Source: Brucella haematophila (GTDB lineage: Bacteria; Pseudomonadota; Alphaproteobacteria; Rhizobiales; Rhizobiaceae). From it: a stretch of 64,000 nucleotides of DNA. Shown here in pieces: positions 16,696-35,800 of this stretch. The stretch covers positions 186,001 through 250,000 of the forward strand of contig NZ_VCPE01000001.1 in NCBI RefSeq assembly GCF_005938105.1, given 5' to 3'. The notes under the pieces are model-generated. The model did not search any database. It was given only the letters and a program-made list of their open reading frames with translations, and was not told the origin of the DNA. Each line of letters opens with the position of its first letter. The first letter of the stretch is position 1. Position numbers and translations under genes: made by a program.

Positions 16696-16696
16696 T

Positions 16697-17719
16697 ATGG
16701 CGAGCGAAGCGCCGCCATTCTGGTGGGAAAAGCCCGACTGGCGGGCAAGATCATTGGCCCCGGCAGCGTGGATTTACGGCTCTATCGCCGGGCGACGCCT
16801 GATCCGCTCCGAACCACCGCGGATTAGCCTGCCCGTTCTCTGTATTGGCAATTTCACGGTCGGCGGCGCAGGCAAAACCCCGACGGCAATTGCCTTTGCC
16901 AAAGGCGCAAAGGCGCGGGGGCTGAAACCGGGCATCGTCTCACGCGGCTATGGCGGCAGCTATCAGGGCCTGCATGTGGTGGACCCGGGGCACGACAGCG
17001 CCCGTTATGTCGGTGATGAACCGCTTTTGCTTGCACGCCATGCGCCGGTTGCGCTTTCTCCTGATCGGGTGAAAGCGGCGCAGTATCTGCAATCGCTCGG
17101 CTGCGATTTCATCATCATGGATGACGGGTTCCAAAGTGCGCGTCTTCATGCCGATTTTGCGCTGTTGGTGGTGGATGCGGGGCGGGGGATCGGCAATGGC
17201 CGTGTTATCCCGGCAGGTCCGTTGCGTGCGCCGCTGACCGACCAGATGCGCAAGACCGATGCGCTGCTGCGGATCGGCAAGGGCGATGCGGCGGATTTCG
17301 TGATCCGTCAGGCGGCCCGAGCCGGACGACCGATCTATGAGGCAAAGCTCATTCCATCATCGACGGCAACGGTGGCGGGCCAACGCTGGCTGGCCTTTGC
17401 CGGTATCGGCAATCCGGACAAGTTCTATGCAAGTCTTGCCCAGGCAGGCGGTACGATTGCGGAAACGCGCTCGTTTCCTGACCATCACAGCTTCGAGCCT
17501 GACGAAATTCGCGATCTGATCGATACGGCCCGCCGCAGCGGTCTGAGCCTGATCACCACGGCGAAGGACCACGTGCGTCTGGCGACCATGGTCGGTGTAC
17601 CGGCTGAATTTCTGTCGAAACTGGCGGTTCTTGATATCGATCTGAAATTTGAGCGCTCGGACGCGCTCAATCATATCCTCGATACGGTGATCGAGCGCTT
17701 TAAAAGCCGGTCGTTATAA
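16697..17719 (+). CDS. lpxK: Tetraacyldisaccharide 4'-kinase
   Basis: 340 residues. Walker A GNFTVGGAGKTP (about 51-62), the LpxK-specific SRGYGG (about 83-88) and the DDGFQ motif (about 139-143) are all present. It phosphorylates the 4' position of lipid A disaccharide on the cytoplasmic face of the inner membrane. The ATG at 16697 lies one base after the waaA stop, and the N-terminus (ASEAPPFWWEKPDWRARSLAPAAWIYG) is typical of the family's membrane helix. Last gene of the envelope operon; convergent with DUF2093. Confidence 0.95.
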   Translation: MASEAPPFWWEKPDWRARSLAPAAWIYGSIAGRRLIRSEPPRISLPVLCIGNFTVGGAGKTPTAIAFAKGAKARGLKPGIVSRGYGGSYQGLHVVDPGHDSARYVGDEPLLLARHAPVALSPDRVKAAQYLQSLGCDFIIMDDGFQSARLHADFALLVVDAGRGIGNGRVIPAGPLRAPLTDQMRKTDALLRIGKGDAADFVIRQAARAGRPIYEAKLIPSSTATVAGQRWLAFAGIGNPDKFYASLAQAGGTIAETRSFPDHHSFEPDEIRDLIDTARRSGLSLITTAKDHVRLATMVGVPAEFLSKLAVLDIDLKFERSDALNHILDTVIERFKSRSL

Positions 17720-19941: not shown

Positions 19942-20049
19942 GCGGCGATTATAGGCAGATTCGCAGGCCGCGGTAATAGCACCGGGCAGCTTCTGAACCG
20001 AACCTTTGAAACCGCAGGACTGATGCCTGCGGTTTGCTGTGGAACAGCG

Positions 20050-22080
20050 TCAGGCCGCCTGAGCTTCAGCCTCTTTGTTGAGGCCGAGCTGAATTGCGGG
20101 TGCAGGGTATCCAAGCAGGAAGCCTTGCACCTGATTGCAGCCTTCTTCTTGCAGAATATCCATCTGCGACTGCGTTTCGACACCTTCGGCCAGCACGGGA
20201 ATATCGAGGCTTTGGCCGAGCGCCAGAATGGCGCGCACGAAGGCCTTTGACTGCACATTCTGTTCCAGATCGGTGACGAAGCTGCGGTCGAGCTTGATCT
20301 TGTCGAAGGGGAAAGAGCGCAGCGTCGCCAGCGACGAATAGCCGGTGCCAAAATCGTCAATCGCGATGCTGACCCCAAGCGCCTTGATCTCCCGCAAGAT
20401 ATGCAGGGCGCGGGCCTGATCGCGAATGATCGCGCTTTCGGTTACTTCCAGTTCCAGAAGTCGCGGCGACAGACCGGTCTCGGTCAGGATATCCTGAACC
20501 GTTTCCACGAGGCCGGTATGGCTGAGCTGTAGCGGGGAAATATTGACCGCGATCCTGCGGGCAACGGGCCAGCTTGCCGCTTCCCGGCAGGCCGCACGCA
20601 ACACCCATTCGCCAAGCTGAGTAATGACGCCGGATTCCTCGGCTATCGGAATGAACACGGTTGGCGGAACCAGACCCTGCACGGGATGACGCCAGCGCAG
20701 CAGAACTTCATATCCCGATACGCCGCCATCCTTCATGCTGCGTTGCACCTGGAAATTCAGGAAGAACTGGTTTTCGTCAATAGCCGTCCAGATGTCGCGG
20801 GCCAGCGCTGCGCGCTTGCGTGCCGCTTCATCCATGCTGCTTTCATAGTAACAGATCTTGTCTTCAATGCTCTGCTTGGCGCGGTACATCGCCATGTCCG
20901 CATTGGACAACAGCTTTTCCACATCGTCGGCATCGGTCGGATAGATCGCGATACCAAGGCTCGCGCCGGGGCGGACAACGGCATTGCCGAGGTCGACAAG
21001 GTCACAAAGCGCGGTATTGAGGCGTGACATGAAGCTGCGCAGGTCGTCTTCGTCCTCAAATGTCTTCAGGGCTGCAAATTCATCGCCGCCAAAGCGACCG
21101 ATCAGCTCACCGCTTTCCAGATGCTCGGTCATGCGGGTAGAAATCTCGCAGAGCAGTCTGTCACCAGCAGCATGACCATAGAGGTCGTTGACTTCCTTGA
21201 AGCGGTCCAGATCGATGCCGATCAGCGCAATACGATAATGGCCGTTATCGGCATTGATCTTCTCGCGGTTCAGGCGCTCGACAAACTGGGTGCGGTTTGG
21301 CAATCCGGTCAGCGAGTCATGGCGGGCGATATGTTGCAGTTGTCGCAAGTTGGACGACTGGACGTGGCTGTCGATCAGATAGCTGGCCAATGCCGTGCAA
21401 AGCACGAGCAGGCCAACACCGCCAACCGAAATGGCAAGCGTAAACTTATCGGCCAGCGCGGCCTCTTGCAGATAGTTCATAGGGGTGACGGACAGCGCAG
21501 CCATGCCGGTAAAGTGCAGGCTGACGATGGCTGTCGTGAAAGTCAGAACCGCCAGACGGTAAGAGGTCGGGTAGCGCAAGCGCATCAAAACCTGACCGGA
21601 CAGCGAACCGAAAAATATGGCAAGCACGATGGACGCGTAGAAATAATTCATGTTCCATTCGATCAGCCCATCAACGCGATAAGCCAGCATGCCGATATAG
21701 TGCATGGCGGCAATCGAAGCGCCGACCATGGCGCCGCCAATGACCGGGGCGAAACGCGGAAAGCTGCCGGTCATGACCACGAAGCCGATCCCGGTGCCGA
21801 CAACGGCAATCACCAGCGACAGAATGGTCAGGTCTGGCAGCAGCACGACGGGCGCGCTCGGCTCATAAGCCAGCATGGCCACGAAATGTGTGCTCCAGAC
21901 GGTCGAGCCTGATGCGATCGCTACAAGAAAATGCCAGCCATAGCGAACAGCACCATGGCATTTCGCTGCCTTGCGGACGAGATTGAGCGTGATCGCTGAA
22001 CCGATGAGGCAGATCAAGGCTGCCAACGTTGTCAGCCATGCTTCATGTTGCGTGGTGATACAATTGAGAACGGTAATCAT
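20050..22080 (-). CDS. MHYT-GGDEF-EAL membrane protein (cyclic di-GMP metabolism)
   Basis: 676 residues. Seven membrane helices (1-238) carry the three MHYT repeats, as THFVAML (64-70), MHYIGM (126-131) and LHFTGM (188-193), proposed to bind copper and sense gases such as O2, CO or NO. The GGDEF domain has an intact RFGGDEF (329-335) but no RxxD inhibitory site just upstream. The EAL domain reads EVL (458-460) with the other catalytic residues present: ELEVTES (E546), DDFGTGYSS (575-583) and KLD (596-598). Both cyclase and phosphodiesterase activity look possible. An AT-rich 537-base region lies upstream. Confidence 0.93.
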   Translation of the reverse strand: MITVLNCITTQHEAWLTTLAALICLIGSAITLNLVRKAAKCHGAVRYGWHFLVAIASGSTVWSTHFVAMLAYEPSAPVVLLPDLTILSLVIAVVGTGIGFVVMTGSFPRFAPVIGGAMVGASIAAMHYIGMLAYRVDGLIEWNMNYFYASIVLAIFFGSLSGQVLMRLRYPTSYRLAVLTFTTAIVSLHFTGMAALSVTPMNYLQEAALADKFTLAISVGGVGLLVLCTALASYLIDSHVQSSNLRQLQHIARHDSLTGLPNRTQFVERLNREKINADNGHYRIALIGIDLDRFKEVNDLYGHAAGDRLLCEISTRMTEHLESGELIGRFGGDEFAALKTFEDEDDLRSFMSRLNTALCDLVDLGNAVVRPGASLGIAIYPTDADDVEKLLSNADMAMYRAKQSIEDKICYYESSMDEAARKRAALARDIWTAIDENQFFLNFQVQRSMKDGGVSGYEVLLRWRHPVQGLVPPTVFIPIAEESGVITQLGEWVLRAACREAASWPVARRIAVNISPLQLSHTGLVETVQDILTETGLSPRLLELEVTESAIIRDQARALHILREIKALGVSIAIDDFGTGYSSLATLRSFPFDKIKLDRSFVTDLEQNVQSKAFVRAILALGQSLDIPVLAEGVETQSQMDILQEEGCNQVQGFLLGYPAPAIQLGLNKEAEAQAA

Positions 22081-22617
22081 GGAGTGGATTGGCCCCGATA
22101 GCCCTATTAAACGAGGTCAGGGCATTGAACTGCCCAAAGTGATCGGCTTGGTGCAAATGTCGTTCAGTTCTGACGCGACAGATAAACCTGGCTGTTTAGG
22201 TGGTCATTACAAATGCAGAGACTCGATGGAAACCGAGCGGCCGATATACTCAGATCGTATCAGCGCACAGCGGCGCATCATTGTCGTGTAACGCATCATA
22301 GCCTCTAGAAACCCAAGCCCTAATTTATGGTTCCTTTGGTTGCATAGCAATTACTGATTAGCGGTTAACGCGAATATCAAGATTGTGGGCAAATGAAAAT
22401 TTTCACAAGAATGTTATGAAAAATAGCCCACTATTGTGGGGTTTTTGGCGGTGAAGCGACATTGTTTATGCATTTCTGATATTGCGAAGCTTAATAAAAA
22501 AACCATAAGAATTACATCTATAGGTAGTATCGCTTTTAGGTAATTACTGGAACCTCTTGGTTCCGTGCTTAAATTCCGTTATTGCAGATATTGTTTATAT
22601 AACGGGGGATATCGGAC
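22081..22617. other. Long AT-rich divergent intergenic region
   Basis: 537 bases with no credible gene between the divergent c-di-GMP protein and double hydrolase genes. It is much more AT-rich than its surroundings from about 22300. It contains the palindrome GGAACC-TCTT-GGTTCC (22549-22564) 53 bases before the hydrolase start, and GGGGGATAT just before that ATG as ribosome-binding site. It must hold both promoters; no recognised operator or riboswitch is seen. Confidence 0.6.
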
Positions 22618-24393
22618 ATGGGCGACGGCGTGGAGAGTATTTCATCTTCCAAGCCCCTGGATGGCATGGCGGCGGCCAGTCCGATTGTCTTTTCCGACAC
22701 TCTGGGGCTGTTTCAGCGGGCCGCTGGCCCATTTCTCGATACGGTTGTCGTCTTTGCAAGCCCCTGGGGGCTGGAAGAACTTTGCACCACGCGGAAATTC
22801 TGGCGCATCATTGCCGACAGGTTGGCGAGCCGTGGAATTGCGTCGCTTCGCTTTGACTGGCCGGGCACTGGCGACGCGCGCGATGACATCGACTTTTCTT
22901 CCGGGCTGGAACTCTGGCGAAAGACGCTGATCGAAGCGGCGGACAAGGCGCGGCTTTTGTCGGGCGCAAGCCGCGTGGTAATCATTGGGCAGAGCCTTGG
23001 TGCGGCAGTCGCCGCCGAAACGGGGCCGCGTATCGAAGGTCTGGAAGCGCTGGCATTGTTGTCTCCGGTGATTTCCGGTCGGTTTTACACGCGTGAGCTG
23101 GCGGTGTGGTCGAGTATGGTCGATGCCGATCTGGGCCTTCCCGATGCGCAGCGGATCAAAGGGGCGGTTTCCATCGCGTCTTTGACGATGACGCCGGAAA
23201 TTGCGACTGAAGTGAAGAAGATCAATCTTCTTTCGTTGCCAGAAAAGCCTGCGGACAAATGCCTTCTGCTCGCAAGGATCGACCGCCCGAACGATGCGGA
23301 ACTGGCAGCGCAGCTCGAAACGCTGGGCGCGGAAGTCACCGTGGAAGCCTTCACCGATTACGACAAGCTGATTTCCAATCCGGTTATTTCGCGATTGCCT
23401 TTAAATGTTGCGGATCGACTGGTCGATTGGGCGGTGGCGCTTGCCGGTTCCAGACCGGCACGGAACAGTGCCGATGAAAGCGGTCTCGGTGGGCAGATCG
23501 CGGGCGACGGCTTCGTCGAAACGCCGGTGGCATTCGGTGCGAACAACCGTCTGTCGGGTGTTCTGTGCGAGCCTTTGGGTGAAAGGAAGGGGCAGACCGT
23601 CCTGTTCCTGTCGTCTTCTTATGATCGGCGCGTCGGATGGGGACGGACCACCGTTGACATGGCGCGCAAGCTGGCGCGAGACGGTGTTCCGTCGCTCCGC
23701 TTCGACATTTCCAATGCCGGTGACAGCCCGCCCAATCCGGGCATGCCGGAACAGGTGCTTTATACGCACGCGCCGGAGGCCGATGTGGCCGATGCGCTCG
23801 ATTATCTGGACGGGATTGGGCTGGGGCGTCCGGTGTTGGCCGGACGTTGCAGCGGTGCATTTCTTGGGCTGCACTGTGCAGTGCTGGACGAGCGGGTATC
23901 GGGCGCGGTGCTGGTCAATCCGGTGACATTCTATTGGGCGCCAGAGCTTTCAGTCGACGATGTCGTGCGCGAGGGCAATCGCACGCTGGAAGACTATGGC
24001 AGCCGTGCCATGCGTCTTGATACGTTCAAGCGTTTGTTCCGTGGAGAACTCGATATTCGCGCCATCCTGCGCAATATTGTGCGGGGTGTTAGCGGGCGGG
24101 TGCTTGGGCTGGCGCGCAAACTCTTGCGCAGTCGCACGGTTGAAGGCCGGGCGATCTATTCCGCTTTCGATGAATTGAAATTGCGGCAGGTGCCGCTGAC
24201 GCTGGTCTATGCTGAAAAAGACACTGGTCGCGAGCATTTCAATTATTATTTCGATCAGGTGGGCGACAAGGTGCAGCGCTTCGACAATGTGAGTGTCGCG
24301 ATCATTCCCGACGCCGATCACAATCTGACGCCGGAACATGCGCGCACGGTCTATATCGATGCGATCCGCTCGCTGGCTTTGAACGCTGGTTAG
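22618..24393 (+). CDS. Tandem alpha/beta-hydrolase protein with an atypical second nucleophile
   Basis: 591 cytoplasmic residues forming two alpha/beta-hydrolase domains. Domain 1 (about 25-275) has SLRFDWPGTGDARD and a normal elbow G-Q-S-L-G with Ser126, but no His is seen at the usual place near its end. Domain 2 (about 300-591) has SLRFDISNAGDSPPNP, an elbow G-R-C-S-G with Cys411 at the nucleophile position, Asp535 and His568. The two halves are similar to each other, suggesting duplication and divided roles. It converges on the carrier-protein operon; a thioesterase-like role there is inference. The stop codon TAG is formed by the adjoining repeat. Confidence 0.85.
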   Translation: MGDGVESISSSKPLDGMAAASPIVFSDTLGLFQRAAGPFLDTVVVFASPWGLEELCTTRKFWRIIADRLASRGIASLRFDWPGTGDARDDIDFSSGLELWRKTLIEAADKARLLSGASRVVIIGQSLGAAVAAETGPRIEGLEALALLSPVISGRFYTRELAVWSSMVDADLGLPDAQRIKGAVSIASLTMTPEIATEVKKINLLSLPEKPADKCLLLARIDRPNDAELAAQLETLGAEVTVEAFTDYDKLISNPVISRLPLNVADRLVDWAVALAGSRPARNSADESGLGGQIAGDGFVETPVAFGANNRLSGVLCEPLGERKGQTVLFLSSSYDRRVGWGRTTVDMARKLARDGVPSLRFDISNAGDSPPNPGMPEQVLYTHAPEADVADALDYLDGIGLGRPVLAGRCSGAFLGLHCAVLDERVSGAVLVNPVTFYWAPELSVDDVVREGNRTLEDYGSRAMRLDTFKRLFRGELDIRAILRNIVRGVSGRVLGLARKLLRSRTVEGRAIYSAFDELKLRQVPLTLVYAEKDTGREHFNYYFDQVGDKVQRFDNVSVAIIPDADHNLTPEHARTVYIDAIRSLALNAG

Positions 24394-24494
24394 AGCGGTT
24401 CCGGTTAAAACGGAATCGTGGAACCGCTCTATCTATTTGTTTTTACGCATTATCCCACGCAAAACCGCTACGCACTTTTGCTGGAAATGCTCTA
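24391..24494. repeat. Rhizobial-type intergenic palindromic element filling a convergent gap
   Basis: 104 bases: TAGAGCGGTTCC (24391-24402) pairs with GGAACCGCTCTA (24420-24431), then TTTGTTTTTACGCATT and a second half ending in TGCTCTA (24488-24494). The first TAG is the stop of the double hydrolase and the last CTA is the TAG stop of the GH2 gene. Architecture is shared with the element at 27919-28024. Similar elements are abundant in Rhizobiales genomes (from memory). Confidence 0.75.
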
Positions 24495-26942
24495 AAACCA
24501 GACAGTTCGCGACGATCCGGCAATGCGAATTTCGCCGCACGGTTTGCCTTCGCCATCATGGCGGGGGAGAAGTGCGACACGCTTCGTCACGCCGGGGGCG
24601 AGATGGAACCAGCTTTCCGCCGCTCTCCAGCCTTCCGCGTCGATGCTGACCGATTGCGCCAGCACGGATGTGCTCAGATCGAGAAACCAGTTGCCGCTGT
24701 CTTCCACGACACTGCATTCAATTGCGGCATCGTGGAAAGCTTTGGTGCGTCCCTGCGGAAAATGAAAAGCCTCCGCAATCGTGGCTTCGCCGCGTTTCAA
24801 CCGGGCAACCGTCACGTCATGGGCCGGAGGGCCGAAGCGATAGGCATAAGTTGTGTCGAAAAATGCGCCGAACAATTCGGTCGCCGGTATTGTAACGGCT
24901 GAACGGGCTGAGAGCGAAAGATCGCGGCGACCGCTCACGACCGGCTGTGCACCGGCGCGCAGGCAGGCGAGTTCGAGTGTCAGGTCGGCGGTATGGGGTT
25001 GTTCATTCAGGACGTGAATGGCCAGCCCGTTGACGCCTTCGTCGGTCAAGGCAACCTGAACCGGACGAAACGCGCGTTTCAGCCCATGCCATGCGGGTTT
25101 CGGTTCGCAGGTCGCATCGACCACGCCCCAGCCAGCACCCGGCAACACGTCCTGAAATGTCCAGACCAGAGCGCCAAAACAGGTGCTTGCCGGTCGCCGC
25201 CATTCGGCAAAGGTCGCCTCCATCACTTCCGCCGTAACGGCGCGGGAAAGATGGAGATATTGCTCCATGTCCTCCCGCCGCAAGCGGGCAGGGTCGTAGC
25301 CATAGAGCATTTCCAGATAGGCATCGCGCACGTCTTCGAAATCCCACGACACGCCGCGATCACGCGGAACACGCGCTTTCCAGCGCGGATCATGGACTGC
25401 GGGCACGTCAAGATGCGCCTTGAGCGTGCGCGCTTCTGGAACATTGGAGAAAGCCAGACTTTCGGTCGCAAAGCGCACTTCGGCGCGGCGCGCATCGTCC
25501 AGTGGTCGGCAATAGGCGCTGACGCCGTAATAATGGCTGACGCCTTCATTGCTGATGAAGGGCAGTGCCCCATCGCAGGGCGAATTCGGCACATAAGGAA
25601 TGTCAGGGCAGAACTCGCGCACGATGGCAGGCAGAATTTCTTCGGTCAGCGCGCCTTTCCAGATTGTCTCGGGCAGGCCCATCATGGCACCCTGCTGGTA
25701 AATCTCGCTGCCGCCGCACAACACAGTCAGTGAAGGTGCATGGCGAATGGCGCAAAGAAGCTGTCGTGCTTCATCCTGTACTTTGGCGACGAAGCCTTCA
25801 TCTTTCACCGGGTAGTCGAAATTGGCAAACATGAAGTCCTGCCAGACCATGATGCCGAGTTCATCGCAAAGGGCATAAAAGTCCGGCGTTTCATAAGCCG
25901 TAATGCCGCTGATGCGCAGCATGTTCATGCCCGCATCCTGCGCGAGCTGCAACCATGGTTGATAGTCGGCGCGTGCGCCCGGCAGGCGGACAATGTCGGC
26001 AGAACTCCAGACCGCGCCGCGACAAAAGACTTTCTCGCCGTTGATCACCAGCGCGAATGATTTCCCGTCCGAGCCGCGATCAACGCCGATGCGGCGAAAG
26101 CCGGTGCGCCCGAGCGGCTGCTTTTTGGCGTCGATGGATAGTTCCACATCATGGAGCGTCGGCGCGCCATGAGTGTGCGGCCACCATGGTTCCACAGCGG
26201 GAATGGTCAGTTTTGCCTGCCAGCGACCGTCTGCTTGTCTGTCACAGGTGATCTGCGAACCTGCGCAATGCAGGGCCAGATTTTCAGCCTTGCCCGCGTA
26301 GGTAAAACTGACGGTAACTTCTCCGTCGCCATTTTCATGAAGCGTGGATTGGATGGCAATGTCGGTAACAGCTTCCGCGTCGGCTCGGCTGATCGTCACC
26401 GGACGCCAGGGGCCGACAGCATGAACTTCCGGGCACCAGCCCGGCATATGACCAAGCGCTGTCATGCGGATGAGGCGTAAGCCCTGCGTGTTCATCAATT
26501 GCGTGCGCCAGCGCGCACGCGGGCCCTTCTGCTCCAGCCGGGGACCAAGAGCACGGAAGCAGAGCGCCAGCTCATCCGCGCCGGTCAGCGTGACCGGCAA
26601 GTCGTGGGCGAGGAACATGCTGTCGCTGGTGCAAACCAAAGCGCCGTTCAAATAGATTTCGCAAATCGTGGCAAGACCTGCAAAATGCAGCATTGCCTCA
26701 CCGGGCGGCTCGGAGAGGTCGAGAAAATACCACGCATCCTGATTGTTCAGCGGTGTTGGAGCAGTGCGGCTGAAGTGTCCTGCCTTTTCAAGCGCTTCTG
26801 CCACCGTTCCCGGAACCGGCGCATCGAGATACGCCCGATTGCGCAAGACATCGCCCGGCGTTGCGGCCTCATTGGCTGCGGTCAGGAAAAGCCGCCAGCC
26901 CTCATTGAGCGGGCGGCTCGTGGCAGTTTGTTCAGGCAGCAT
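24492..26942 (-). CDS. Glycoside hydrolase family 2 protein, beta-mannosidase-like
   Basis: 816 residues. The order is jelly-roll sugar-binding domain (about 10-180; PVPGTVAEALE, FAGLATICEIYLNG), Ig-like domain, then the TIM-barrel (about 290-600) with RRIGV, MLRISGITAYETPDFYALCDELGIMVWQDF. The acid/base Glu in LCGGSE (about 413) and the probable nucleophile Glu in RFATESLAF (about 494) are both present, so it should be active. No signal peptide is visible, so it may work in the cytoplasm on a small glycoside. ATG 26942 overlaps the DUF1839 stop; TTG 26963 with AGGAG five bases upstream is an equally plausible start. Last gene of the carrier-protein operon. Confidence 0.88.
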   Translation of the reverse strand: MLPEQTATSRPLNEGWRLFLTAANEAATPGDVLRNRAYLDAPVPGTVAEALEKAGHFSRTAPTPLNNQDAWYFLDLSEPPGEAMLHFAGLATICEIYLNGALVCTSDSMFLAHDLPVTLTGADELALCFRALGPRLEQKGPRARWRTQLMNTQGLRLIRMTALGHMPGWCPEVHAVGPWRPVTISRADAEAVTDIAIQSTLHENGDGEVTVSFTYAGKAENLALHCAGSQITCDRQADGRWQAKLTIPAVEPWWPHTHGAPTLHDVELSIDAKKQPLGRTGFRRIGVDRGSDGKSFALVINGEKVFCRGAVWSSADIVRLPGARADYQPWLQLAQDAGMNMLRISGITAYETPDFYALCDELGIMVWQDFMFANFDYPVKDEGFVAKVQDEARQLLCAIRHAPSLTVLCGGSEIYQQGAMMGLPETIWKGALTEEILPAIVREFCPDIPYVPNSPCDGALPFISNEGVSHYYGVSAYCRPLDDARRAEVRFATESLAFSNVPEARTLKAHLDVPAVHDPRWKARVPRDRGVSWDFEDVRDAYLEMLYGYDPARLRREDMEQYLHLSRAVTAEVMEATFAEWRRPASTCFGALVWTFQDVLPGAGWGVVDATCEPKPAWHGLKRAFRPVQVALTDEGVNGLAIHVLNEQPHTADLTLELACLRAGAQPVVSGRRDLSLSARSAVTIPATELFGAFFDTTYAYRFGPPAHDVTVARLKRGEATIAEAFHFPQGRTKAFHDAAIECSVVEDSGNWFLDLSTSVLAQSVSIDAEGWRAAESWFHLAPGVTKRVALLPRHDGEGKPCGEIRIAGSSRTVWF

Positions 26943-27912
26943 CGCGACCAAGTTCTGTTTCAAGCGCTCCTGTCATGCGATCCCATGCATCGGCGGCAGG
27001 CACCAATGCGCTTGCCAGCGTATCGAACTTCTTGCGCATCACCGCGCGGGCAAGCTGGAACTGTACGGCCTTGGCGGTTTCGGCAATCTGGATAGCGTCG
27101 GCAGCAGCAGCGGTAAAACGCTTGCCTTCGCCCAGCCATTGCAGATGGCTTGCGGCCAGTTCGAAATTCGCGCCGAGCTGGCGCAGCGTGTTGAAGGCAT
27201 ATTTGTGGAAGAAGCCGAAGGGACGTTCGGCAATCGCTTCCACCTGTGCCGGAAAAACAGTTGCGAAAGCGCGGATCGGATTGTCCTTGGGCCTGCGCGC
27301 AAAGTGGCGCGGCAACAGAATTTCCGCCACGCGCCGCTGATGCGCTTCGGTCGGCACATCCTTCGGGAATTTCGCAAATTCCGTATAGGGCAGGAAGGGC
27401 AAGTCGGCTTCCGTCAGATGACGCTGGAAAACGCCGTCGAAATCCTCGCCCTCCAGATGGTAGAAGCCGCCATTATGGAAATAATCGAGCGAACGGTTCT
27501 CTACATCCATGCGGTTGATCGCGATGGTGGTTTTGCCATGCTCGGTGCGATAGCTCACGCCATGCGTATCAGGCATGAAATAGCTGTCCATCTCGACCAT
27601 GCACAGCCGTCCGCGCGCGATCTGTTCCGCGATATGGCCTTCCACACTGTCGAAGATGGCAAGCTCCGTCGCCCGCACGCCATAGAGCGCTTCGAGGTCT
27701 TCCAGCGGCACCTTGAAGAAGGTGAACTGGTCGCCCTCGAAATCCTGCGTCAGGGTAAAGCCCAGCATCGCTTCGGGAGCGACCCGAAGCGACGCCAGCA
27801 CTTCGATCCAGAGATCGACATAGCAATTGGTTTCAGGCCAAATGCGTGTCTGCGCATGCAGCGCATGCGGCGCGTAGCCTTCTGGCGAGATATGCGGAAA
27901 GACTGCCTGCAT
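26932..27912 (-). CDS. DUF1839 family protein
   Basis: 326 residues, cytoplasmic, matching DUF1839. It contains NCYVDLWIEVLASL near the start, a central GDQFTFFKVPLEDLEALYG, then GRLCMVEMDSYFMPDT..YRTEHGKTTIAINRMD and a helical C-terminal half. The middle resembles the cysteine-peptidase-like BtrH fold used for aminoacyl transfer in butirosin synthesis; that resemblance is from memory and weak. No biochemical role is known. It always tends to occur beside the amino acid:carrier-protein ligase. Here it is separated from that gene by a repeat element and overlaps the GH2 gene. Confidence 0.8.
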   Translation of the reverse strand: MQAVFPHISPEGYAPHALHAQTRIWPETNCYVDLWIEVLASLRVAPEAMLGFTLTQDFEGDQFTFFKVPLEDLEALYGVRATELAIFDSVEGHIAEQIARGRLCMVEMDSYFMPDTHGVSYRTEHGKTTIAINRMDVENRSLDYFHNGGFYHLEGEDFDGVFQRHLTEADLPFLPYTEFAKFPKDVPTEAHQRRVAEILLPRHFARRPKDNPIRAFATVFPAQVEAIAERPFGFFHKYAFNTLRQLGANFELAASHLQWLGEGKRFTAAAADAIQIAETAKAVQFQLARAVMRKKFDTLASALVPAADAWDRMTGALETELGRDAA

Positions 27913-27918
27913 GTCGCT

Positions 27919-28024
27919 TTAGAGCACGTTCCAATCTGATTGAGTCAGACCTGCGCTCTCATCCCTTCTATTTTAAGCACAATCTTATCGACCTTCGGTT
28001 CACTCCGGTCGGATTATGCTTTAA
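27919..28024. repeat. Intergenic palindromic element inside the carrier-protein operon
   Basis: About 106 bases between the ligase and DUF1839 genes. It opens TTAGAGCACGTTCC, closes its first hairpin near GCGCTCT (27953-27959), continues with TCTATTTTAAGCACAAT and ends with a second hairpin (CGACC-ttcggttcactcc-GGTCG) and ATGCTTTAA. The ligase stop codon TAA lies in its last bases. Layout resembles the 24391-24494 element (AGAGC hairpin, T-rich middle, TGCT(C/T)TA end). Confidence 0.65.
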
Positions 28025-28929
28025 CCCCACAATTCGTTGCGTACGCTCTCCGGCCAGGCTTTGACGTCGAGACCATGGTGATGGAACAGCGCCAGCGCGA
28101 TGCGTTCCAGCCCGAAGCCGACGCAAGCCGTGTGCGCAACTTCGCCGTCATGCTGCGACAAGCCCCACTTCACACCGAACTGGTCCTGATGATAGTTGAA
28201 GCTCATGCAGGCGGTTGGCTTTTCGACGCTGGTGATCGGGATCAGCAGTTCGAATTTCAGGTTCTGGTCGCGCTGGTTGTTGACCAGCATGCGTCCTGCG
28301 CGTCCGAAGAAGGGATCGTTCGCCACGTCGATTTCAACCGGCAGGCCAACCTTCTTCATCATGTCGGTGCCGCGCTCTATCCAGAGCTGGCGGAATTCCA
28401 TCACGTCGGCTTCCGTGCCCATGCGCACATATTCGCGCATGCGGAACAACTGCTGGCGGGCAGGGTCCACCGAAGGTTCATGACGGAAGCAATAGGATTG
28501 CAGGTCATAGAGGCCGCCGCCTTGCGGCAGCGGACCGCGCTTGGCAATCGTTGGATAGAGCGGATAGCAGGCGGCGGGCGTCAGGACGATGTCCGTTGCC
28601 TTCTGCTCCAGCGTCCAGTCTTCGCCAGCATCCATGCATTTGATGAGGTTGATATGGTCCAGCTCGCAACCGCAGAAACTGTGCACCGTACCGGCCAGCT
28701 GCGGGAAGCTCTTCATATAGCCGCTTTTTTCAAAGTAAGCGCGATTGAGGCCGGGCGGGAAGCGGATCGCTTCTGCGCCATCAGCGCCGCCGGTGCGGTC
28801 AACGAGGCGCTCGAAGGCGACGATAACATCTTCAAACTGGCCGGAGCGCCCGTAAAGGCCGTCCACGCCGGTTTCAATCAGCAGTCCGGCATCGAAAAGC
28901 CGGTTGAGAAAAGATCTTTGCGCGTCCAT
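28021..28929 (-). CDS. Amino acid:[carrier protein] ligase (truncated SerRS-like)
   Basis: 302 residues, a class II synthetase catalytic core without the tRNA-binding coiled-coil of SerRS. Motif 2 is [22 protein letters not shown] (148-169) and motif 3 [11 protein letters not shown] (271-281). The zinc ligands expected from the Bradyrhizobium enzyme Bll0957 map to Cys121, Glu166 and Cys269, with the same spacing as the published Cys131/Glu176/Cys279 (recalled). Such enzymes adenylate Gly or Ala and load it on the phosphopantetheine arm of a small carrier protein, not on tRNA. It lies 4 bases after the flavoprotein gene. Which amino acid it uses is not readable from sequence. Confidence 0.93.
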
Positions 28930-28933
28930 GGCG

Positions 28934-30106
28934 TTATCCCAAGAGGCTGGTGTTCTGTTTGTGAATGAGCAGCATGGTGGCCGTGTTGCCGAGGATGCGC
29001 TCGTTGGAAATCATGAGCTGGGCCGAATGCGCATCGCGCAAATGACGGCCAAGGCTGTAGGGCGTGCCGTTCTTGTAGCCCATGATGCCGCACACCAGCA
29101 TGGCGTGGTTGATGACCTGCAAAATCGTCTGCGAGGCAGCGACCTTCAGATTGTTCATCGCGATGGCAAAGCCCATGGACGCAAGTTTGTCCGCGTCGTG
29201 CTTCGCGTCCTTATAGGTCTTGAGGCAGGCGACGATTTCCGACTTCAGCATTTGCAGCATGTTGGAGGCTTCGGCGACGCGCAAAGCGCCCGGCTGCGGT
29301 GCGCCCGGATTGCGGCGTGCTGCGGCGCGCACGAAAGCCTGCGCGCGGTTCACGGCATCGACGGCGATGCCATACCAGAGCGAACTCCACAATGTATGCG
29401 ACTGTGCCAGCATGGACTGCGCTGCAATCTCGGCAAACGGATGCGGCAGGATCTGCACCTTGTCCGCTTCGCCCCGGAACACAAAGCCTTCCGAACAGGT
29501 GCCACGCATGCCGAGCGTGTCCCATTCATTGGTCTTTTCCAGCGTGTACTGGTCTTTCCGGAAAACGGTCATGACCTGATCGGACGAGGCCGCATCCTTG
29601 TGTGAACGCGACGTGATCAGGATGGCATCGGCATAAACGCCATAGGAAATAACCGTGGCGTTCTTTTCCAGACGGCAGGTGTCGCCATCGATTTCGATTG
29701 CGCAGATGGAATTGCGCAAATCGCCGCCAATGCCGCCTTCCGTGGTCGCCGAGGCAAGCAGCAACTGATCATCCGCGACGTCACGCATGAAGTTGCGATG
29801 CCATTCGACCGATTGCCCGTGCTCCACCAGGCTGGACAGCTTGATGTGGTGCATGGCGAATATCATCGCGCTTGCAGCACAGGATTGTCCCAGAATGCAG
29901 CACAGTTCTGCAATCTGGTCGATCTCGGCGCTTTCGCCGCCCAAATCGCGTGACACCTGAATGCCGAGCAATCGCTCGGTCTTCATCGCATCAATGGCTT
30001 CCTGCGGAAAGCGTCCTTCCTTGTCGACGCTATCGGCAAATTTTCCGGCGATGGCTGCTACGCGACCGGCACGCTCGGAAAGACTATTCCCCCCGCCTGC
30101 ATTCAT
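28934..30106 (-). CDS. Acyl-CoA dehydrogenase-family flavoprotein of the carrier-protein operon
   Basis: 390 residues with the ACAD three-domain layout. It has a helical N-domain ([30 protein letters not shown]), a beta domain ([33 protein letters not shown]) and a C-terminal four-helix domain. The usual catalytic Glu near the C-terminus is not obvious; [22 protein letters not shown] occupies that area. It begins in TAATG overlap with the carrier-protein gene, so it most likely acts on an aminoacyl or acyl thioester bound to that carrier, as PltE/PigA flavoproteins act on prolyl carriers. That role is inference. Confidence 0.88.
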
Positions 30107-30357
30107 TACGCGGCCTCATTATCCTTGAGGATGGTGGTGATCGTCTGTTCAATCGCGCTGATGCTTGCAAACGACTTGCGATTGAGAAACTGGTCCGGAA
30201 ATTCGATGTCGAACTTGTCTTCAAGGCCAAGCATCAGCTGCACCGAGGCGAAAGACGACAGGCCAGCCGTATAAAGATCGGCATCGTCTGCGATGTCGGT
30301 CACGGCTATGGGCAATCCGCCAACTTTGGTCAGAAGTTCCCGAATAGATTCATTCAT
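30106..30357 (-). CDS. Dedicated small acyl/aminoacyl carrier protein
   Basis: 83 residues, acidic, four-helix carrier-protein fold. The phosphopantetheine site is AGLSSFASV, with Ser35 at the position of the ACP DSL serine. Helix II (VQLMLGLEDKFDIEFPDQFL) and a terminal helix follow. It should be modified by the host phosphopantetheinyl transferase and then loaded with an amino acid by the ligase two genes downstream. GGGGAAA precedes the ATG by ten bases. First gene of the minus-strand operon; two GGTGCAC sites lie just upstream. Confidence 0.92.
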   Translation of the reverse strand: MNESIRELLTKVGGLPIAVTDIADDADLYTAGLSSFASVQLMLGLEDKFDIEFPDQFLNRKSFASISAIEQTITTILKDNEAA

Positions 30358-30734
30358 GGTTCATTTCCCCGCGTTTGGTGCACAGATCGACGGGAGCGTC
30401 TTCATCCGGTGCACCATTTGCCTATGTTAGCTCTTGAAGGTCTACAACCCCTGCTTGAGGCGATATTAGTATCAGGAAGCCTTTATATTATGTTGACAGG
30501 ACGGGGCGGTTGTCGGTCAAATGTGCAAAGCGTCGCATATAGTTAAATATTGATGATGGTTACCGCCGCTGTTGATCTGCAAGATCAGGCCAAAGTTGGG
30601 AGAAAGTTTCGTATAAATTCTTTTCTGCGCCTTTAAATTTTTCGAAGGGAATATTCATATTACTTTGTTGAGAAAATAATATTATTTGGTAAAGATAGGA
30701 GAAATACGCAATAGAGTGGCCATGAAGTCTTGAA
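30358..30734. promoter_or_regulatory. Divergent promoter region of the carrier-protein operon and AEC transporter
   Basis: 377 bases, AT-rich toward the transporter. Two copies of GGTGCAC occur at 30377-30383 and 30408-30414, 31 bases apart (about three helical turns), upstream of the carrier-protein start. The core GTGCAC is itself palindromic, so they could be operator half-sites; no regulator gene is adjacent. A 32-codon frame (MNIPFEKFKGAEKN..., minus strand near 30655-30560) is present but has no ribosome-binding site. Confidence 0.4.
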
Positions 30735-31670
30735 ATGATCGATATCATATACGTTATTACGCCGATATTCGCGCTCATGGCATTTGGTTTTCTTGCGGTG
30801 AAGGCGGGTTTATTTCCGACCTCTGGCGTTGGTAGTCTCATCTCCTTCGTGAATAATTTTGCAACGCCCTGTTTGCTGTTCTACTCGATTACGACGAGCG
30901 ACTTTCGTTCCGCCTTCGATCTCAAGATCATCGGGCCGTTTTATGTGGCAGCGATTATCTGCTTTGTGCTTGGCATAACGATTGCCCGCAAAGTCTATAC
31001 GAACCGTCCCGGCGAAAGCGTGTCTGTCGGTTTCACCGGTACATTCACCAACACTGTGCTGATTGGCTTGCCGATCATGACGCGCGCTTATGGCGATCAG
31101 GCGCTGCCGGTCACTTTGTCGATCATCGGCCTGCATGGGGCTATCCTGCTGACGGTCGGCATGATGACGATGGAGCTGGTACGCCGCGACGGTGAGGTTT
31201 TGAGCAAGACAATCATTGTTGCCCTGCGCCGTATTGGTTCCAATCCGCTCATCTGGGGCATTGCCACCGGCATTATCGGCTCTAGCCTTGGCCTCCAACT
31301 GATAGAGCCTGCGGATGCGTTTTTCTCGATGATGGCACAATCGGTCGTGCCGGTCTCGCTGTTCGGCATTGGTGGCGCGCTGACACAATTCAAGCTCTCG
31401 GAAAACTGGAAACAGGCTCTCATTGCATCGATCATCAAGCTGATGGTGCATCCGGCGCTGGCCTATGTCCTGATGATCTGGGTGCTGAAAGTGCCGGTGG
31501 AAACCGCGCGTTATGGTGTGTTGCTCGCGGCCATGCCAGCCGGGGTGAATGTCTATATTTTCGCGACCTATTATAATCGCGCCTCCGGTGTGGCGGCCAA
31601 TGCTATCCTCATCGGCACACTGCTTTCAGCAGTCACCATGTCTTTCTGGCTCTATGTTCTCGGCAGTTAG
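30735..31670 (+). CDS. AEC (auxin efflux carrier) family transporter
   Basis: 311 residues with about ten membrane helices in two inverted five-helix halves (1-150 and 165-311). Typical features are NNFATPCLLFYSI in helix 2, GFTGTFTNTVLIGLPIMTRAYG with the crossover region, and the C-terminal AAMPAGVNVYIFATYYN. The family exports or exchanges small organic anions. It is divergent from the carrier-protein operon; exporting that pathway's product would fit but is unproven. GAAG is the only weak ribosome-binding site near ATG 30735. Confidence 0.88.
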   Translation: MIDIIYVITPIFALMAFGFLAVKAGLFPTSGVGSLISFVNNFATPCLLFYSITTSDFRSAFDLKIIGPFYVAAIICFVLGITIARKVYTNRPGESVSVGFTGTFTNTVLIGLPIMTRAYGDQALPVTLSIIGLHGAILLTVGMMTMELVRRDGEVLSKTIIVALRRIGSNPLIWGIATGIIGSSLGLQLIEPADAFFSMMAQSVVPVSLFGIGGALTQFKLSENWKQALIASIIKLMVHPALAYVLMIWVLKVPVETARYGVLLAAMPAGVNVYIFATYYNRASGVAANAILIGTLLSAVTMSFWLYVLGS

Positions 31671-31697
31671 TGCGGGGCCGGTTGGCTCTCACACCTG

Positions 31698-32594
31698 TCA
31701 GACCGCGCGTCTGCGCTTCATGGTGATTTCGTAGCGTTCCCACCCGACAAGCACAAAGCTGGAAGCGACGATCAGCAAGGCGCCGACGAAGACGTTCGTT
31801 GCGGGGACTTCTGCCCAGATCGCGTAGCCGTAGACAAAGGCCCAGATGAGGCCGGTATATTCGACGGGTGCAAGTGCCGATGCGGGCGCGTGGCGGAAAC
31901 CTTCATAAAGAAGATATTGGCCAAGCGTGGCGATCAGGCCGAGGCCGAACATCAGCGCCCAGCCCATGGCGTCGGGCCATTGCCAGATCCACGGAAAGGA
32001 AACCGCGCAGGCGATGCCAAAGATCAGGCTCGTGGCGAACATCTGGGTCAGCGTTGTTTCGCTGCGGCTGACAAGCCGGATCAGGATCGTGCTCCATGCC
32101 CAGCAAAAGCCGGCCACCACGCACATGATGGCGGGGATCAGGTTTGGCGAATGACCGGGATTGGCCGCGATGAGAACGCCGACGAAGCCGCCGAAACAGG
32201 CGATCCAGCGCCCGGTTCCAATCCGCTCCTTCAAAACAAGAATGGACAGGAACATGACCATTATGGGCGCGGAGAAATAGAGCGTGGTCAGTTCGGCAAG
32301 ACCGAGAAACTTGGCTGCATTATAGAACAAAAGCCACGCGAACAGCATAAGCCCGGGGCGCAGCACAAGTGTTCCGCGATAGGGGCTGTGCATGATCGAC
32401 GGGTGGCGATAATGGCGCACCAGAACGCCGGTAATTACCACAATGACCAGACTGCGCATGAAGAGGATTTGCGGCACGGCATAGATGGCGACAAGCCACT
32501 TTACCAGTGCATCCTGCAAGGCAAAGCATGCATAGCCCGCCGATGCCAGCGCAATTCCGACCAGCGGCTTCGTTTCCTGCATGCCCGTTGACAT
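31698..32594 (-). CDS. EamA/DMT superfamily transporter
   Basis: 298 residues, ten membrane helices as two EamA repeats (about 10-145 and 155-285). Characteristic pieces are ALASAGYACFALQDALVKWL, LTTLYFSAPIMVMFLSILVLKERIG and the second-half LAPVEYTGLIWAFVYGYAIWAEVP. It is probably a metabolite exporter; the substrate is unknown. Convergent with the AEC gene, 27 bases apart. Confidence 0.88.
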   Translation of the reverse strand: MSTGMQETKPLVGIALASAGYACFALQDALVKWLVAIYAVPQILFMRSLVIVVITGVLVRHYRHPSIMHSPYRGTLVLRPGLMLFAWLLFYNAAKFLGLAELTTLYFSAPIMVMFLSILVLKERIGTGRWIACFGGFVGVLIAANPGHSPNLIPAIMCVVAGFCWAWSTILIRLVSRSETTLTQMFATSLIFGIACAVSFPWIWQWPDAMGWALMFGLGLIATLGQYLLYEGFRHAPASALAPVEYTGLIWAFVYGYAIWAEVPATNVFVGALLIVASSFVLVGWERYEITMKRRRAV

Positions 32595-32759
32595 AATGAC
32601 CCGCCAAACCCGTTATTATTCAACGAGCTGTTACTCCCGGCGCAGAGCAATGTCATGTCAAAAATAATGATCGATTGATCAGGGTTTCTGACAGGACGCG
32701 CACGCAGTTTTTTCCACTCATGCGTGCGGTAATACTCGGGTTTCCATGCAATGTTGAAA

Positions 32760-32804
32760 ATTGTTTTCTGAAAACAATGTAAAATACGACATGTGCCGTA
32801 TTTT
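32760..32804. promoter_or_regulatory. Two adjacent palindromes upstream of the autotransporter gene
   Basis: ATTGTTTTCTGAAAACAAT (32760-32778) is a perfect 19-base palindrome around a central T. Two bases later AAAATACG (32781-32788) and CGTATTTT (32797-32804) form an 8-bp inverted repeat with an 8-base spacer. They sit in a 303-base AT-rich gap (32595-32897), about 95 bases before the autotransporter start. They look like dimeric-regulator operators; no regulator is identified. Confidence 0.45.
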
Positions 32805-32897
32805 GTTAAATGTTTCTGTATGTCTATTCGATGACCTCTTGTCGTAAATACATTTTAGTGACAAATAAAATAAGAATTTCGGGGCAAGGGGGACGTT

Positions 32898-35800
32898 GTG
32901 CGGTCGGGGACACTGGCGGGGGCGCTTGGCGCGTCGGGATGGCGTTATTTTTGTGCGATGTTGCTGGGGCTTTTTGCCTTGATATTCGGCTCATTGGCGG
33001 CTCAATCTGCGCCGACGGCAGGCTCACTAACGATGATTGTGAGAAAGGATATGCCAGCCAATGGCTGGCTTCCGGCAACTGGCGACGGCATAACTTTCTC
33101 AATTACACCCGATCCGCAGCATGGTAGTGTTACAAGCTTAGATACTAGTACGGGCTTCTTTGTCTATACGCCTGCACCAGGTTTTATTGGAAGTGACACT
33201 TTTAACTATCAGGTAACAGATGGTGCCAGTTTTGCTTCGGGCGTTGTTACACTCAATGTGATTGACGAGCCAAAAGTAACGTCAGTGGCAGTCCCTGCGT
33301 CTGGCTACTACAAAACCGGCGATGTGTTGACGTTTTCGGTAGCATTTGACCAAAATGTGTTTGTGACAGGGGTTCCATCTGTACCTATCCTTATCGGTAC
33401 AACCACGCGCAGTGCGACTTATAAGTCAACAATTGGAAATAACGTTCTAACTTTTTCCTATACTGTCGAGTCTGGTGATAAGGATACAGACGGGATTAGT
33501 CTTGGCTCAGCGATAGACTTGAATGGCGGCGCCATTCAAGCCATCGGCGGGCTGTCAGCCAATCGCACATTTGTTAATGTTGGCGCGACGAACGGCGTAC
33601 TTGTCAATGTAAGCACGCCCACATTGAGCATCACGAATTCGTCGTCACCTTTCGATAATGTCCAGTTGCTCGTGGTTACTTTTTCTGAGGGAGTGACGGG
33701 GCTTTCAGAAAATGATTTTATTTTGACAACAACGGGTACTGTCGGGGCGACCCCTACATTGTTGCCGATGGGGAGCAGTTTGGTCTATTTGCTTCAGGTT
33801 GTTGTTTCGGGTAGCGGATCGGTTATGGTAAGTCTCCCTGCGGGAGCTGTTACAAATGCCGACGGAATTGGCAATATCGCATCCAATGTCTTGAATGTAC
33901 CGATAATGCAGTCAGCCGATGCGAATTTGCAGAACCTCATTCCCAGCGCGGGGACGTTAGCGCCTGCCTTTGACCCCAACACGATCTCTTATACGCTGAA
34001 TGTAGCAAACGACGTCGAGACAATTACTTTTACCCCAACGCTTTCGGATACGAGGGGTGCGGTTGTCATCAACGGGGCAACAATACCCAATGGAACGGCC
34101 ACCCCTGCAATTAATCTGGCGGTTGGAAGCAATACGGTTACCACCACAGTAACCGCGCAGAATGGAACCACCACGAAGACTTATACTGTCAACGTTATCC
34201 GCGCGCAGTCGGGCAATGCCGATCTGGTGGGTCTGGTACCGAGCGCGGGAACTTTGGATCCGGCATTTTCACCCGGCAATACGGCCTATTCGTTGACGGT
34301 CCCTAACGGAACATCGTCGTTACAACTGACACCCACATCCGCTGATCCAACGGCCACCATTGCGGTCAATGGAGCAACCGTACCATCTGGTAGTGCGAGC
34401 ACTGCACTACCGCTTGGCATCGGTACCACGACCCTGACGGCTGTCGTCACGGCGCAAAATGGAACAACGCGCAGCTATACGGTAAATGTCACCAGAGCTG
34501 CGTCAGCGGATGCAACGCTTGCTGGCCTCGTTCCCAGTGTTGGCTCGCTGGACCCGGCATTTGACAAAGAGACACTCAGCTATTCTATCAATGTTGAAAA
34601 CACGGTCGAGAGCATAACCTTCGCCCCAACAGTTTCCGAACCCTCCGCTCGCATAACCGTTGCAGGGGGCAGCGTTGCGTCGGGAAGTTCAAGCGCTCCC
34701 ATAGGGCTGACTATTGGTGCGAACACGGTTTCGATTGTCGTGACTGCACCAAGTGGGGCTAACCGCAGCTACACGGTTGTGGTCAACCGTGCGGCCATGG
34801 TTTTCCCCGACCCGACGCTCGATCCGGAAGTAATCGGTTTGTTGAACGCGCAGACAAGTGCCGCACGACGCTTTGCACAGGTTCAAACCCGGAATTTCCA
34901 AAACCGGCTTGAGCAGTTACATGATGAAGGCGACAGGCGAAGGTCTAGCCTCGGTGTGCGGCTTGGCAGTCCATCGACCGCACAGCAACCGGAAGACCCG
35001 GCCAATCCCTCGTCGTCAGCATCATCGGCAGGGATTTCACCTCTCGGCTATGCCCCCGAAAAGCGCGACAGCTTTCCGGGCAAGGCTATTGGCTTGAAAG
35101 AGCCGGAGCAGCCTGCGCCGACTATCGATCCAGACCTTGGGCCATTCGCATTCTGGAGTAGCGGCTTTGTGAACTTCGGTCAGCGCGATAGCGGTAAGGT
35201 CGATCTGGACTATACGCTTGTCGGCGTGAGTGGCGGCATTGATTACCGGTTCTCGGAACGCTTCGTGGCGGGCTTCGGTGTCGGATACGGGCGGGATCGC
35301 ACAGATATTGGCGACAATGGCACGGAGAGCCGCGCCAATGCCTACAGCGCTGCGGTCTATGGTAGCTTCAAACCGATCGACAATTTCTTTATCGATGCGC
35401 TTGTCGGCGGCAGCATTCTCGACTTTGACTCCACCCGTTTCATCACGGCAGATGGCAGTTTGACCGACGGCAAACGTGATGGCCATCAATTGTTCGGATC
35501 GCTGACGGCTGCTTATGAATTCCGTCAAGCAGCATGGTTGGTCTCACCTTATGGCCGGATGGAAATGTCGCGCTCCTGGCTTGATGGCTATTCCGAAGGT
35601 GGCGAAAGCATCTACCGGCTGACCTATGGCGATCAGACCGTGGACACTGTCACAGGTGTGGTTGGTTTGCGCGCCAATTACGCCATCGACTACACATGGG
35701 GGCGTCTGACCCCCGGTGTCCGCGCTGAATATGCTCATGATTTCCAGGGTTCCAGCCGGGCCGCCATGGGATATAGCGCGCTTGGCGGGCTTCCCTATGC

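What the first reader, a model, noticed from the sequence alone, without database searches (positions are those of the whole stretch)
26932..30357. Orphan aminoacyl-thioester pathway: carrier protein, flavoprotein, amino acid:carrier ligase, DUF1839 and GH2 in one operon
Seen: five minus-strand genes, coupled by TAATG overlap, a 4-base gap, one repeat-filled gap and a stop-start overlap. Known: truncated SerRS-like enzymes load Gly or Ala on such carriers and not on tRNA (Bradyrhizobium and Agrobacterium enzymes); the product of these operons has not been identified, as far as I recall. Inferred: the ACAD-like flavoprotein may oxidise the carrier-bound aminoacyl or a later acyl group, DUF1839 may transfer it (its middle resembles aminoacyl-transfer BtrH-type folds), and the mannosidase-like enzyme would trim or release a sugar-bearing product. 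Zinc ligand spacing (Cys121, Glu166, Cys269) equals that of the studied enzyme, so the ligase should be active.
Basis: partly seen in the sequence, partly recalled or inferred. Interest (0 to 1): 0.85.

Follow-up and report, generated by a model that had tools for sequence, protein, structure and literature searches.

The report
Amino-acid decorator operon, probably polysaccharide
A conserved set of bacterial genes loads an amino acid onto a small carrier protein and most likely attaches it, perhaps after oxidation, to an amino sugar of a cell-surface polysaccharide; the role of this kind of ligase is still unproven, and the evidence here gives specific tests.

Summary
The five genes are real and correctly read. 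They form a strict module: all five occur in the same order in 12 of 12 DUF1839 genomes of a 299-genome sample, and in 79 of the 80 best named loci (the 80th is cut by a contig end). The ligase also occurs without DUF1839 (9 of 21 genomes).

A sixth partner was missed: a two-domain alpha/beta-hydrolase (22618-24393, +) with an invariant Cys nucleophile, present in all 12 DUF1839 genomes and in 0 of 16 tested others. Of four copies not beside the operon, three lie next to Wzx, Wzy or Wzz polysaccharide genes; in a relative it is fused to a Wzx flippase.

The DUF1839 model matches, over its length, CcbD (joins a carrier-bound amino acid to an amino sugar), CtaG and AziU3. The GH2 has the Ser-Glu doublet of subfamily GH2_14, not the Asn-Glu of beta-mannosidases. 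The flavoprotein lacks the ACAD catalytic Glu.

Best reading: carrier-dependent N-aminoacylation of an amino sugar of a Wzx/Wzy polysaccharide. A 2010 note added in proof (PMC2922099) predicted much of this; the fold match, sixth partner, Wzx link and active-site details are added here. Acceptor and oxidation product are unproven.

The parts
30106..30357 (-). carrier protein (CP), 83 aa, phosphopantetheine Ser35 in an L-S-S-F motif
   Evidence: PP-binding, NF005480 PRK07081; Ser35 96 of 96
28934..30106 (-). ACAD-fold flavoprotein, 390 aa, catalytic Glu replaced (Ile366; Ser236 at the alternative site), His237 invariant
28021..28929 (-). amino acid:carrier protein ligase, 302 aa, class II SerRS-like core without tRNA-binding domain, Zn ligands C121/E166/C269
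27913..28020 (-). dispersed repeat of about 105 bases inserted between ligase and DUF1839 genes
   Evidence: 10 matches in the own genome, itself included; same place in L073, absent or shorter in most relatives measured
26932..27912 (-). DUF1839, 326 aa, papain-like carrier-dependent amide synthase candidate (C30, H146, T128 or D157)
24492..26942 (-). GH2 glycosidase of GH2_14-like type, 816 aa, acid/base E413 preceded by S412, nucleophile E494
22618..24393 (+). two-domain alpha/beta-hydrolase (hydr2/hydr1-like), convergent; C411, D535, H568 invariant in domain 2; domain 1 lacks a conserved nucleophile

Best explanation
A carrier-protein pathway that puts an amino-acid-derived acyl group on an amino sugar of a Wzx/Wzy-type surface polysaccharide. 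(1) The SerRS-like ligase activates a small amino acid and loads it on the carrier (shown elsewhere for relatives; inferred here). (2) The flavoprotein modifies the carrier-bound aminoacyl group. With its ACAD catalytic Glu gone, and with no beta-carbon if the amino acid is glycine, N- or C-alpha-oxidation (monooxygenase or oxidase) is more likely than alpha,beta-dehydrogenation (inferred). (3) DUF1839 takes the acyl group on Cys30 and passes it to the amine of an amino sugar in the cytosol, as CcbD does in lincosamide synthesis (inferred from fold, Cys and partners). (4) The GH2, which by eye has no signal peptide and whose Ser-Glu site may admit a C2-substituted sugar, trims or edits the decorated glycan (inferred). 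(5) The Cys-type alpha/beta-hydrolase acts on the same glycan at or near the Wzx flippase, as acyl-transferase or editing hydrolase (inferred from fusion, neighbourhood and phyletic pattern).
Against: No chemistry was tested. A fold match does not show function, and AziU3, also matched, is not an amide synthase as far as I recall. The DUF1839 triad is not settled. Glycosyltransferase (GT4-type) genes lie near only 4 of 10 scanned loci. Polysaccharide-type families also occur near ligase-only control loci (Wzz 3, GNVR 2, a glucosamine-transferase-like family 2, of 76 neighbours), so neighbourhood alone is weak. One hydrolase copy (L155) showed only DUF2155 in the one neighbour scanned. Both tested GH2_14 enzymes cleave unsubstituted pNP-galactoside (PMC12243196, passages), which does not call for an amino sugar. 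In the window no polysaccharide export gene adjoins the operon; a GT/Wzx-rich locus lies about 50 kb beyond the window end on the same contig, with no shown link.
Confidence: 0.5

Rival explanations
1. The product is a small diffusible aminoacyl-sugar or pseudo-peptide (lincosamide- or butirosin-like), made by ligase, carrier, flavoprotein and DUF1839; the GH2 removes a protecting or carrier sugar and the alpha/beta-hydrolase releases it.
For: The three full-length structural neighbours of DUF1839 all come from natural-product pathways (pathway names partly recalled). The five genes include no glycosyltransferase, and two transporter genes (Mem_trans, EamA) lie just upstream.
Against: The hydrolase partner is fused to, or sits beside, Wzx-type flippases and other polysaccharide genes in several genomes; the module is widespread and conserved across rhizobial genera, more like an envelope function.
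Confidence: 0.25
2. O-aminoacylation (ester) of a surface polymer, Dlt/Alm-like: the Cys alpha/beta-hydrolase is the final transferase and DUF1839 only relays or edits the acyl group.
For: Invariant Cys-Asp-His in hydrolase domain 2 (59 of 59 each for C411, D535, H568) and fusion to Wzx would suit a transferase on a lipid-linked glycan.
Against: The CcbD-like fold of DUF1839 points to amide formation. No MBOAT- or DltD-type transferase was seen among the single proteins scanned.
Confidence: 0.12
3. The flavoprotein is a true dehydrogenase acting on alanyl-carrier (to dehydroalanyl), with a catalytic base other than the usual Glu.
For: In the profile search acyl-CoA dehydrogenases score above nitrososynthases, Foldseek ranks both mixed together, and an invariant His237 could be a base.
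Against: The position of the ACAD catalytic Glu is Ile (98 of 101) or Val (3 of 101), and Ser, Ala, Thr or Cys stand at 236, which I take (from recall of other ACADs) as the other base site.
Confidence: 0.1

Closest known systems
Amino acid:carrier protein ligases of Bradyrhizobium and Agrobacterium (Bll0957, Bll6282, Atu2573; names partly recalled) and their neighbourhood as described in the 2010 note of PMC2922099
   Same: Same ligase family, same Zn ligands, same neighbours (ACP, redox enzyme, Atu2574-type protein, glycosidase); same predicted amide bond to a surface amino sugar.
CcbD/LmbD of lincosamide synthetase (and CtaG; BtrH by literature)
   Same: Fold over the full length, Cys at a helix start, carrier-bound aminoacyl donor encoded beside it.
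   Different: About 9-15% identity; donor loaded by an aaRS-type ligase; the His/acid partners of the Cys are unsettled and may be permuted; acceptor unknown.
GH2_14 glycosidases (BmGH2_14, SdGH2_14; PMC12243196)
   Same: Ser-Glu doublet, Trp of beta-mannosidases replaced; both reported members lack signal peptides.
   Different: Direct sequence comparison with those two was not made; here Gly at the Trp position in 77 of 92, Ser (window) in 13, Pro in 2.
DltABCD and AlmEFG aminoacyl decoration systems
   Same: Amino acid loaded on a stand-alone carrier and moved to a surface polymer (recalled).
   Different: Adenylation-domain ligases there (recalled), SerRS-like ligase here; papain-like transferase and flavoprotein here.

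Membership tests
amino acid:carrier protein ligase (NF005479) | score above the curated cut-off | tested here: met
   513.2 bits, cut-off 357
amino acid:carrier protein ligase (NF005479) | Zn ligands Cys-Glu-Cys | tested here: met
   C121, E166, C269, 107 of 107; aligned to a Bll0957-type chain
amino acid:carrier protein ligase (NF005479) | no tRNA-binding domain; carrier gene nearby | tested here: met
   302 aa, core only; CP two genes upstream
amino acid:carrier protein ligase (NF005479) | aminoacylates the neighbouring carrier, not tRNA | not testable with these tools
   needs enzymes
CcbD/CtaG/BtrH-type carrier-dependent amide synthase | two-domain papain-like fold | tested here: met
CcbD/CtaG/BtrH-type carrier-dependent amide synthase | nucleophilic Cys at start of first long helix | tested here: met
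   C30, helix 30-41; 92 of 93, exception Arg in L047
CcbD/CtaG/BtrH-type carrier-dependent amide synthase | Cys-His-Glu/Asp triad in canonical order | tested here: inconclusive
   PMC10318531 (passages) reports C(T/S)H for DUF1839, which would be C30-T128-H146; but C30-H146 (116 apart) is near the Cys-His spacing of CtaG (C11, H128 in the titles), so C30-H146-D157 is also possible; no coordinates were inspected
acyl-CoA dehydrogenase | catalytic Glu | tested here: not met
   Ile/Val at 366 and no Glu at 236; rests on a profile alignment of falling confidence at the C-terminus
class D flavin monooxygenase (nitrososynthase-like) | ACAD fold without catalytic Glu, oxygenase activity | tested here: inconclusive
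   single-sequence search ranks DnmZ first, but the profile search ranks dehydrogenases first and the fold search mixes both; activity not testable
GH2_14 | Ser-Glu doublet instead of Asn-Glu | tested here: met
   S412-E413; 91 of 92, one Asn in L046
GH2_14 | Gly in place of His/Trp near C2/C3 | tested here: inconclusive
   position 345: Gly 77, Ser 13 (window included), Pro 2 of 92; equivalence of the column is from alignment only
GH2_14 | sequence clustering with the two tested members | not tested
   their sequences were not fetched
GH2_13 beta-mannosidase | Asn-Glu doublet and Trp | tested here: not met
   although beta-mannosidases are the nearest solved relatives
Dlt/Alm systems | adenylation-domain ligase loading the carrier (recalled) | tested here: not met
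   ligase is SerRS-like

The most novel reading that the evidence does not exclude
A new kind of surface-glycan modification: glycine, loaded by a tRNA-synthetase-derived ligase, is oxidised on its carrier by an ACAD-fold oxygenase (to an N-hydroxy, imine or glyoxylyl form) and joined by a papain-fold enzyme, possibly with a permuted catalytic site, to an amino sugar of a Wzx/Wzy polysaccharide, giving a redox-active, metal-binding or cross-linkable adhesin.
Probability: 0.2. Interest if true: 0.85.

Novelty: new variant of a known kind. Interest (0 to 1): 0.62.

Why it matters
Amino acid:carrier ligases were characterised in 2010 (as cited in PMC2922099) with no known role, and in the searches made here I saw no later paper naming one. 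The module defined here (six partners, a carrier-dependent amide-synthase fold, a glycosidase that may admit amino sugars, a Wzx-linked Cys hydrolase) points to a product class and to simple tests in rhizobia. It would also give a setting for GH2_14-type glycosidases, whose two tested members were slow on the model substrate (PMC12243196, passages), and a function for DUF1839.

Tried and rejected
Chance linkage: rejected (12 of 12; 80 of 80 for ACAD, ligase and GH2; the same 18 of 35). Mirror-tree correlations among the six proteins over 11 loci are high (r 0.64-0.94; at most 1 of 999 permutations reached any of them), but species relatedness alone could give this; for four loci the hydrolase was taken from elsewhere in the same genome. 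Functional tie to EF-P lysylation: EpmA- and EpmB-like genes (labels recalled; class II synthetase and radical SAM by Pfam) lie upstream in 47 of 80 loci but not in the window stretch examined; kept as a passing note. A PDB sequence search with the DUF1839 alignment gave only one weak partial hit, and with the single protein none, so the relation rests on the model. Rfam found nothing in 20000-33000. Promoter-like sites were 6 against a shuffle mean of 2.9 (sd 1.8), terminator-like sites 6 against 7.8; not used. Neighbour counts: I gave 86 of 98 listed neighbours of 10 DUF1839 loci, and 76 of 99 listed neighbours of ligase-only loci (dropped: mostly contig-edge genes, and all of L056); L045, L048 and the window were not in the first set, and each answer lists only the 25 commonest families. 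The first gene caller was poor and was replaced. The ACAD model is of moderate confidence (pLDDT 78, weak in its C-terminal part), so its fold search was not used to choose between dehydrogenase and oxygenase. BtrH was not among the listed structural matches. In 299 genomes, 16 further genomes have weaker ligase matches below the cut-off, none with DUF1839; they were barely studied.
Full report
Observation. The operon is as described. CP (30106-30357), ACAD-like flavoprotein (28934-30106), ligase (28021-28929), DUF1839 (26932-27912) and GH2 (24492-26942) are all on the minus strand, joined by a TAATG overlap, a 4-base gap, a 108-base gap and a stop-start overlap. Pfam and NCBIfam confirm the families (DUF1839 has no NCBIfam match); the ligase scores 513 bits against a cut-off of 357. 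The 108-base gap is a dispersed repeat with 10 matches in the own genome, itself included. Among the closest named DUF1839 relatives are Ochrobactrum strains (98% identity), so the window is probably from that genus, which taxonomists now often join to Brucella (recalled).

Conservation. In an even sample of 299 genomes of the phylum, the ligase family is over its cut-off in 21 (16 more have weaker matches) and DUF1839 is found in 12; those 12 all have the ligase over cut-off. In all 12 the order is CP-ACAD-LIG-DUF1839-GH2. GH2 of this type (E below 1e-200) occurs in exactly these 12; two further genomes have only distant GH2 matches near 1e-41. A scan of named genomes found at least 516 relatives of DUF1839 and kept the best 80, nearly all titled as Rhizobiales genera (two only as Proteobacteria), so this set is biased to close relatives. 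Of these, 80 of 80 have matches to ACAD, ligase and GH2, and 79 to CP, the last being cut by the contig end. Within the genus, the same 18 of 35 genomes hold DUF1839, ligase, GH2 and the alpha/beta-hydrolase; carrier and flavoprotein were not searched there, and two of the 18 (G300, G306) have some of these genes in pieces. Nine ligase genomes over cut-off lack DUF1839 and have other partners, such as AMP-ligase and SDR genes.

A sixth partner. The convergent gene at 22618-24393 (+) encodes two alpha/beta-hydrolase domains like 'hydrolase 2' and 'hydrolase 1' of exosortase-A systems (below their cut-offs). It is in all 11 other DUF1839 genomes and in none of 16 compared genomes without DUF1839 (9 ligase-only, 7 of the same family with neither; 16 of the 287 without DUF1839 were tested). 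In L052 and L053 it directly follows GH2 on the same strand. Domain 2 has an invariant C411, D535 and H568 (59 of 59 each), while the Ser position of domain 1 is Ser in 9, Gly in 45 and Arg in 5, so the active site is of a Cys type. In L044 the protein is fused to a Polysacc_synt_3 (Wzx) domain; 8 of 46 copies in the named survey have a similar length. Four copies are not next to the operon. Their scanned neighbours are Wzy, Wzz, a GH10 and Wzx (L153); Wzz, a protein without match and, a little further, a WecG-type transferase (L154); Wzx and ManC (L156, about 9 kb from the operon); and DUF2155 only, in the one neighbour scanned (L155). L064 has ManC, a Wzc-type protein, a flippase-like protein and a glycosyltransferase next to a second DUF1839 and a hydrolase copy.

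GH2. Its nearest solved relatives are beta-mannosidases, but the Asn before the acid/base Glu is Ser in 91 of 92, and the residue at the mannosidase Trp is Gly (77), Ser (13) or Pro (2). Nucleophile E494 and acid/base E413 are invariant (92 of 92). These traits fit subfamily GH2_14, whose two tested members lack signal peptides, cleave pNP-galactoside slowly and show no mannobiose or mannotriose activity; the authors suggest room for substituted substrates (PMC12243196, passages and part 1 of section 23). I did not compare sequences with those members, and I judged the absence of a signal peptide by eye. That both act on an unsubstituted galactoside does not favour an amino sugar.

Flavoprotein. 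It is an ACAD fold. The position of the catalytic Glu of short- and medium-chain ACADs is Ile (98 of 101) or Val (3), and the alternative site (236, from recall of other ACADs) is Ser, Ala, Thr or Cys. Sequence and fold do not decide between dehydrogenase and oxygenase relatives: the single sequence finds DnmZ first, the profile finds dehydrogenases first. If glycine is the substrate, as recalled for Bll0957, alpha,beta-dehydrogenation is impossible for lack of a beta-carbon.

Ligase. Zn ligands and core match Bll0957. Amino acid specificity was not tested.

Prior work. PMC2922099, note added in proof (section 17 read whole, other passages), already linked the ligase to ACP, a redox enzyme, the Atu2574 protein, a glycosidase and liposaccharide genes, and predicted amide ligation to an amino group on a surface sugar, with probable monooxygenation of the aminoacyl group. 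My reading agrees with it. New here, as far as the papers seen show, are the structural match to CcbD/CtaG, the sixth partner with its Cys site and Wzx link, the GH2_14-like site, the missing ACAD base and the strict co-occurrence counts. I saw no experimental follow-up (one search listed 25 of 1,009 papers, and most listed papers were not opened). Atu2573 appears as one hub gene of an Agrobacterium co-expression module in PMC11941606 (one passage), with no function. The library lacks most subscription journals, and the 2010 PNAS paper itself was not read (recalled, and as cited in PMC2922099).

Limits. No acceptor, amino acid or oxidation product is shown. Glycosyltransferases of the GT4 type lie near 4 of 10 scanned DUF1839 loci (7 of 86 neighbours) and are not among the 25 commonest families for 76 control neighbours, but Wzz appeared 3 times and other envelope-type families twice among those controls. 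In the own genome the best Wzx lies in a GT-rich locus some 50 kb beyond the window, with no shown link. Agrobacterium's unipolar polysaccharide is thought to hold amino sugars (PMC4018554, passages), which makes it a possible acceptor, untested.

Noticed in passing
27913-28020: Dispersed repeat of about 105 bases between ligase and DUF1839 genes; 10 matches in the own genome, itself included.
   Followed up: yes
L106:4170-5234, L124:5329-6381, L127:3443-4012: EpmA-like and EpmB-like genes (47 of 80 loci each) and a divergent efp (45 of 80) lie upstream of the operon: two tRNA-synthetase-derived systems side by side.
   Followed up: partly
L047:10434-11420 and L064:88-1125: One genome has a DUF1839 copy that lost C30 and T128 inside the operon and an intact second copy next to polysaccharide genes.
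   Followed up: partly
L059:10472-13806 and L060: Ligase-only operon type with an esterase, an 85-aa protein without Pfam or NCBIfam match, an AMP-ligase and an SDR; L061-L063 have Cys/Met-metabolism PLP enzyme and homoserine O-succinyltransferase-type genes near flavoprotein and ligase.
   Followed up: no
L054:8584-9459: Protein without Pfam or NCBIfam match next to the ligase of a DUF1839-less locus; a relative is in L061.
   Followed up: no
13442-17719: Lipid A and core genes (inositol-phosphatase-like, DUF374, Kdo transferase, LpxK) about 5 kb beyond the alpha/beta-hydrolase.
   Followed up: no
30735-32594: Two transporter genes (Mem_trans +, EamA -) just upstream of the operon.
   Followed up: no
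32898-35963: Autotransporter with cadherin-like repeats.
   Followed up: no
L161 (own contig, 293-313 kb): Polysaccharide locus with Wzx, a PF00953-type transferase and several glycosyltransferases, a candidate acceptor pathway.
   Followed up: partly
30106-30357: Residue before the phosphopantetheine Ser is Ser or Thr in 94 of 96 carriers, not the usual Asp (usual motif recalled).
   Followed up: partly
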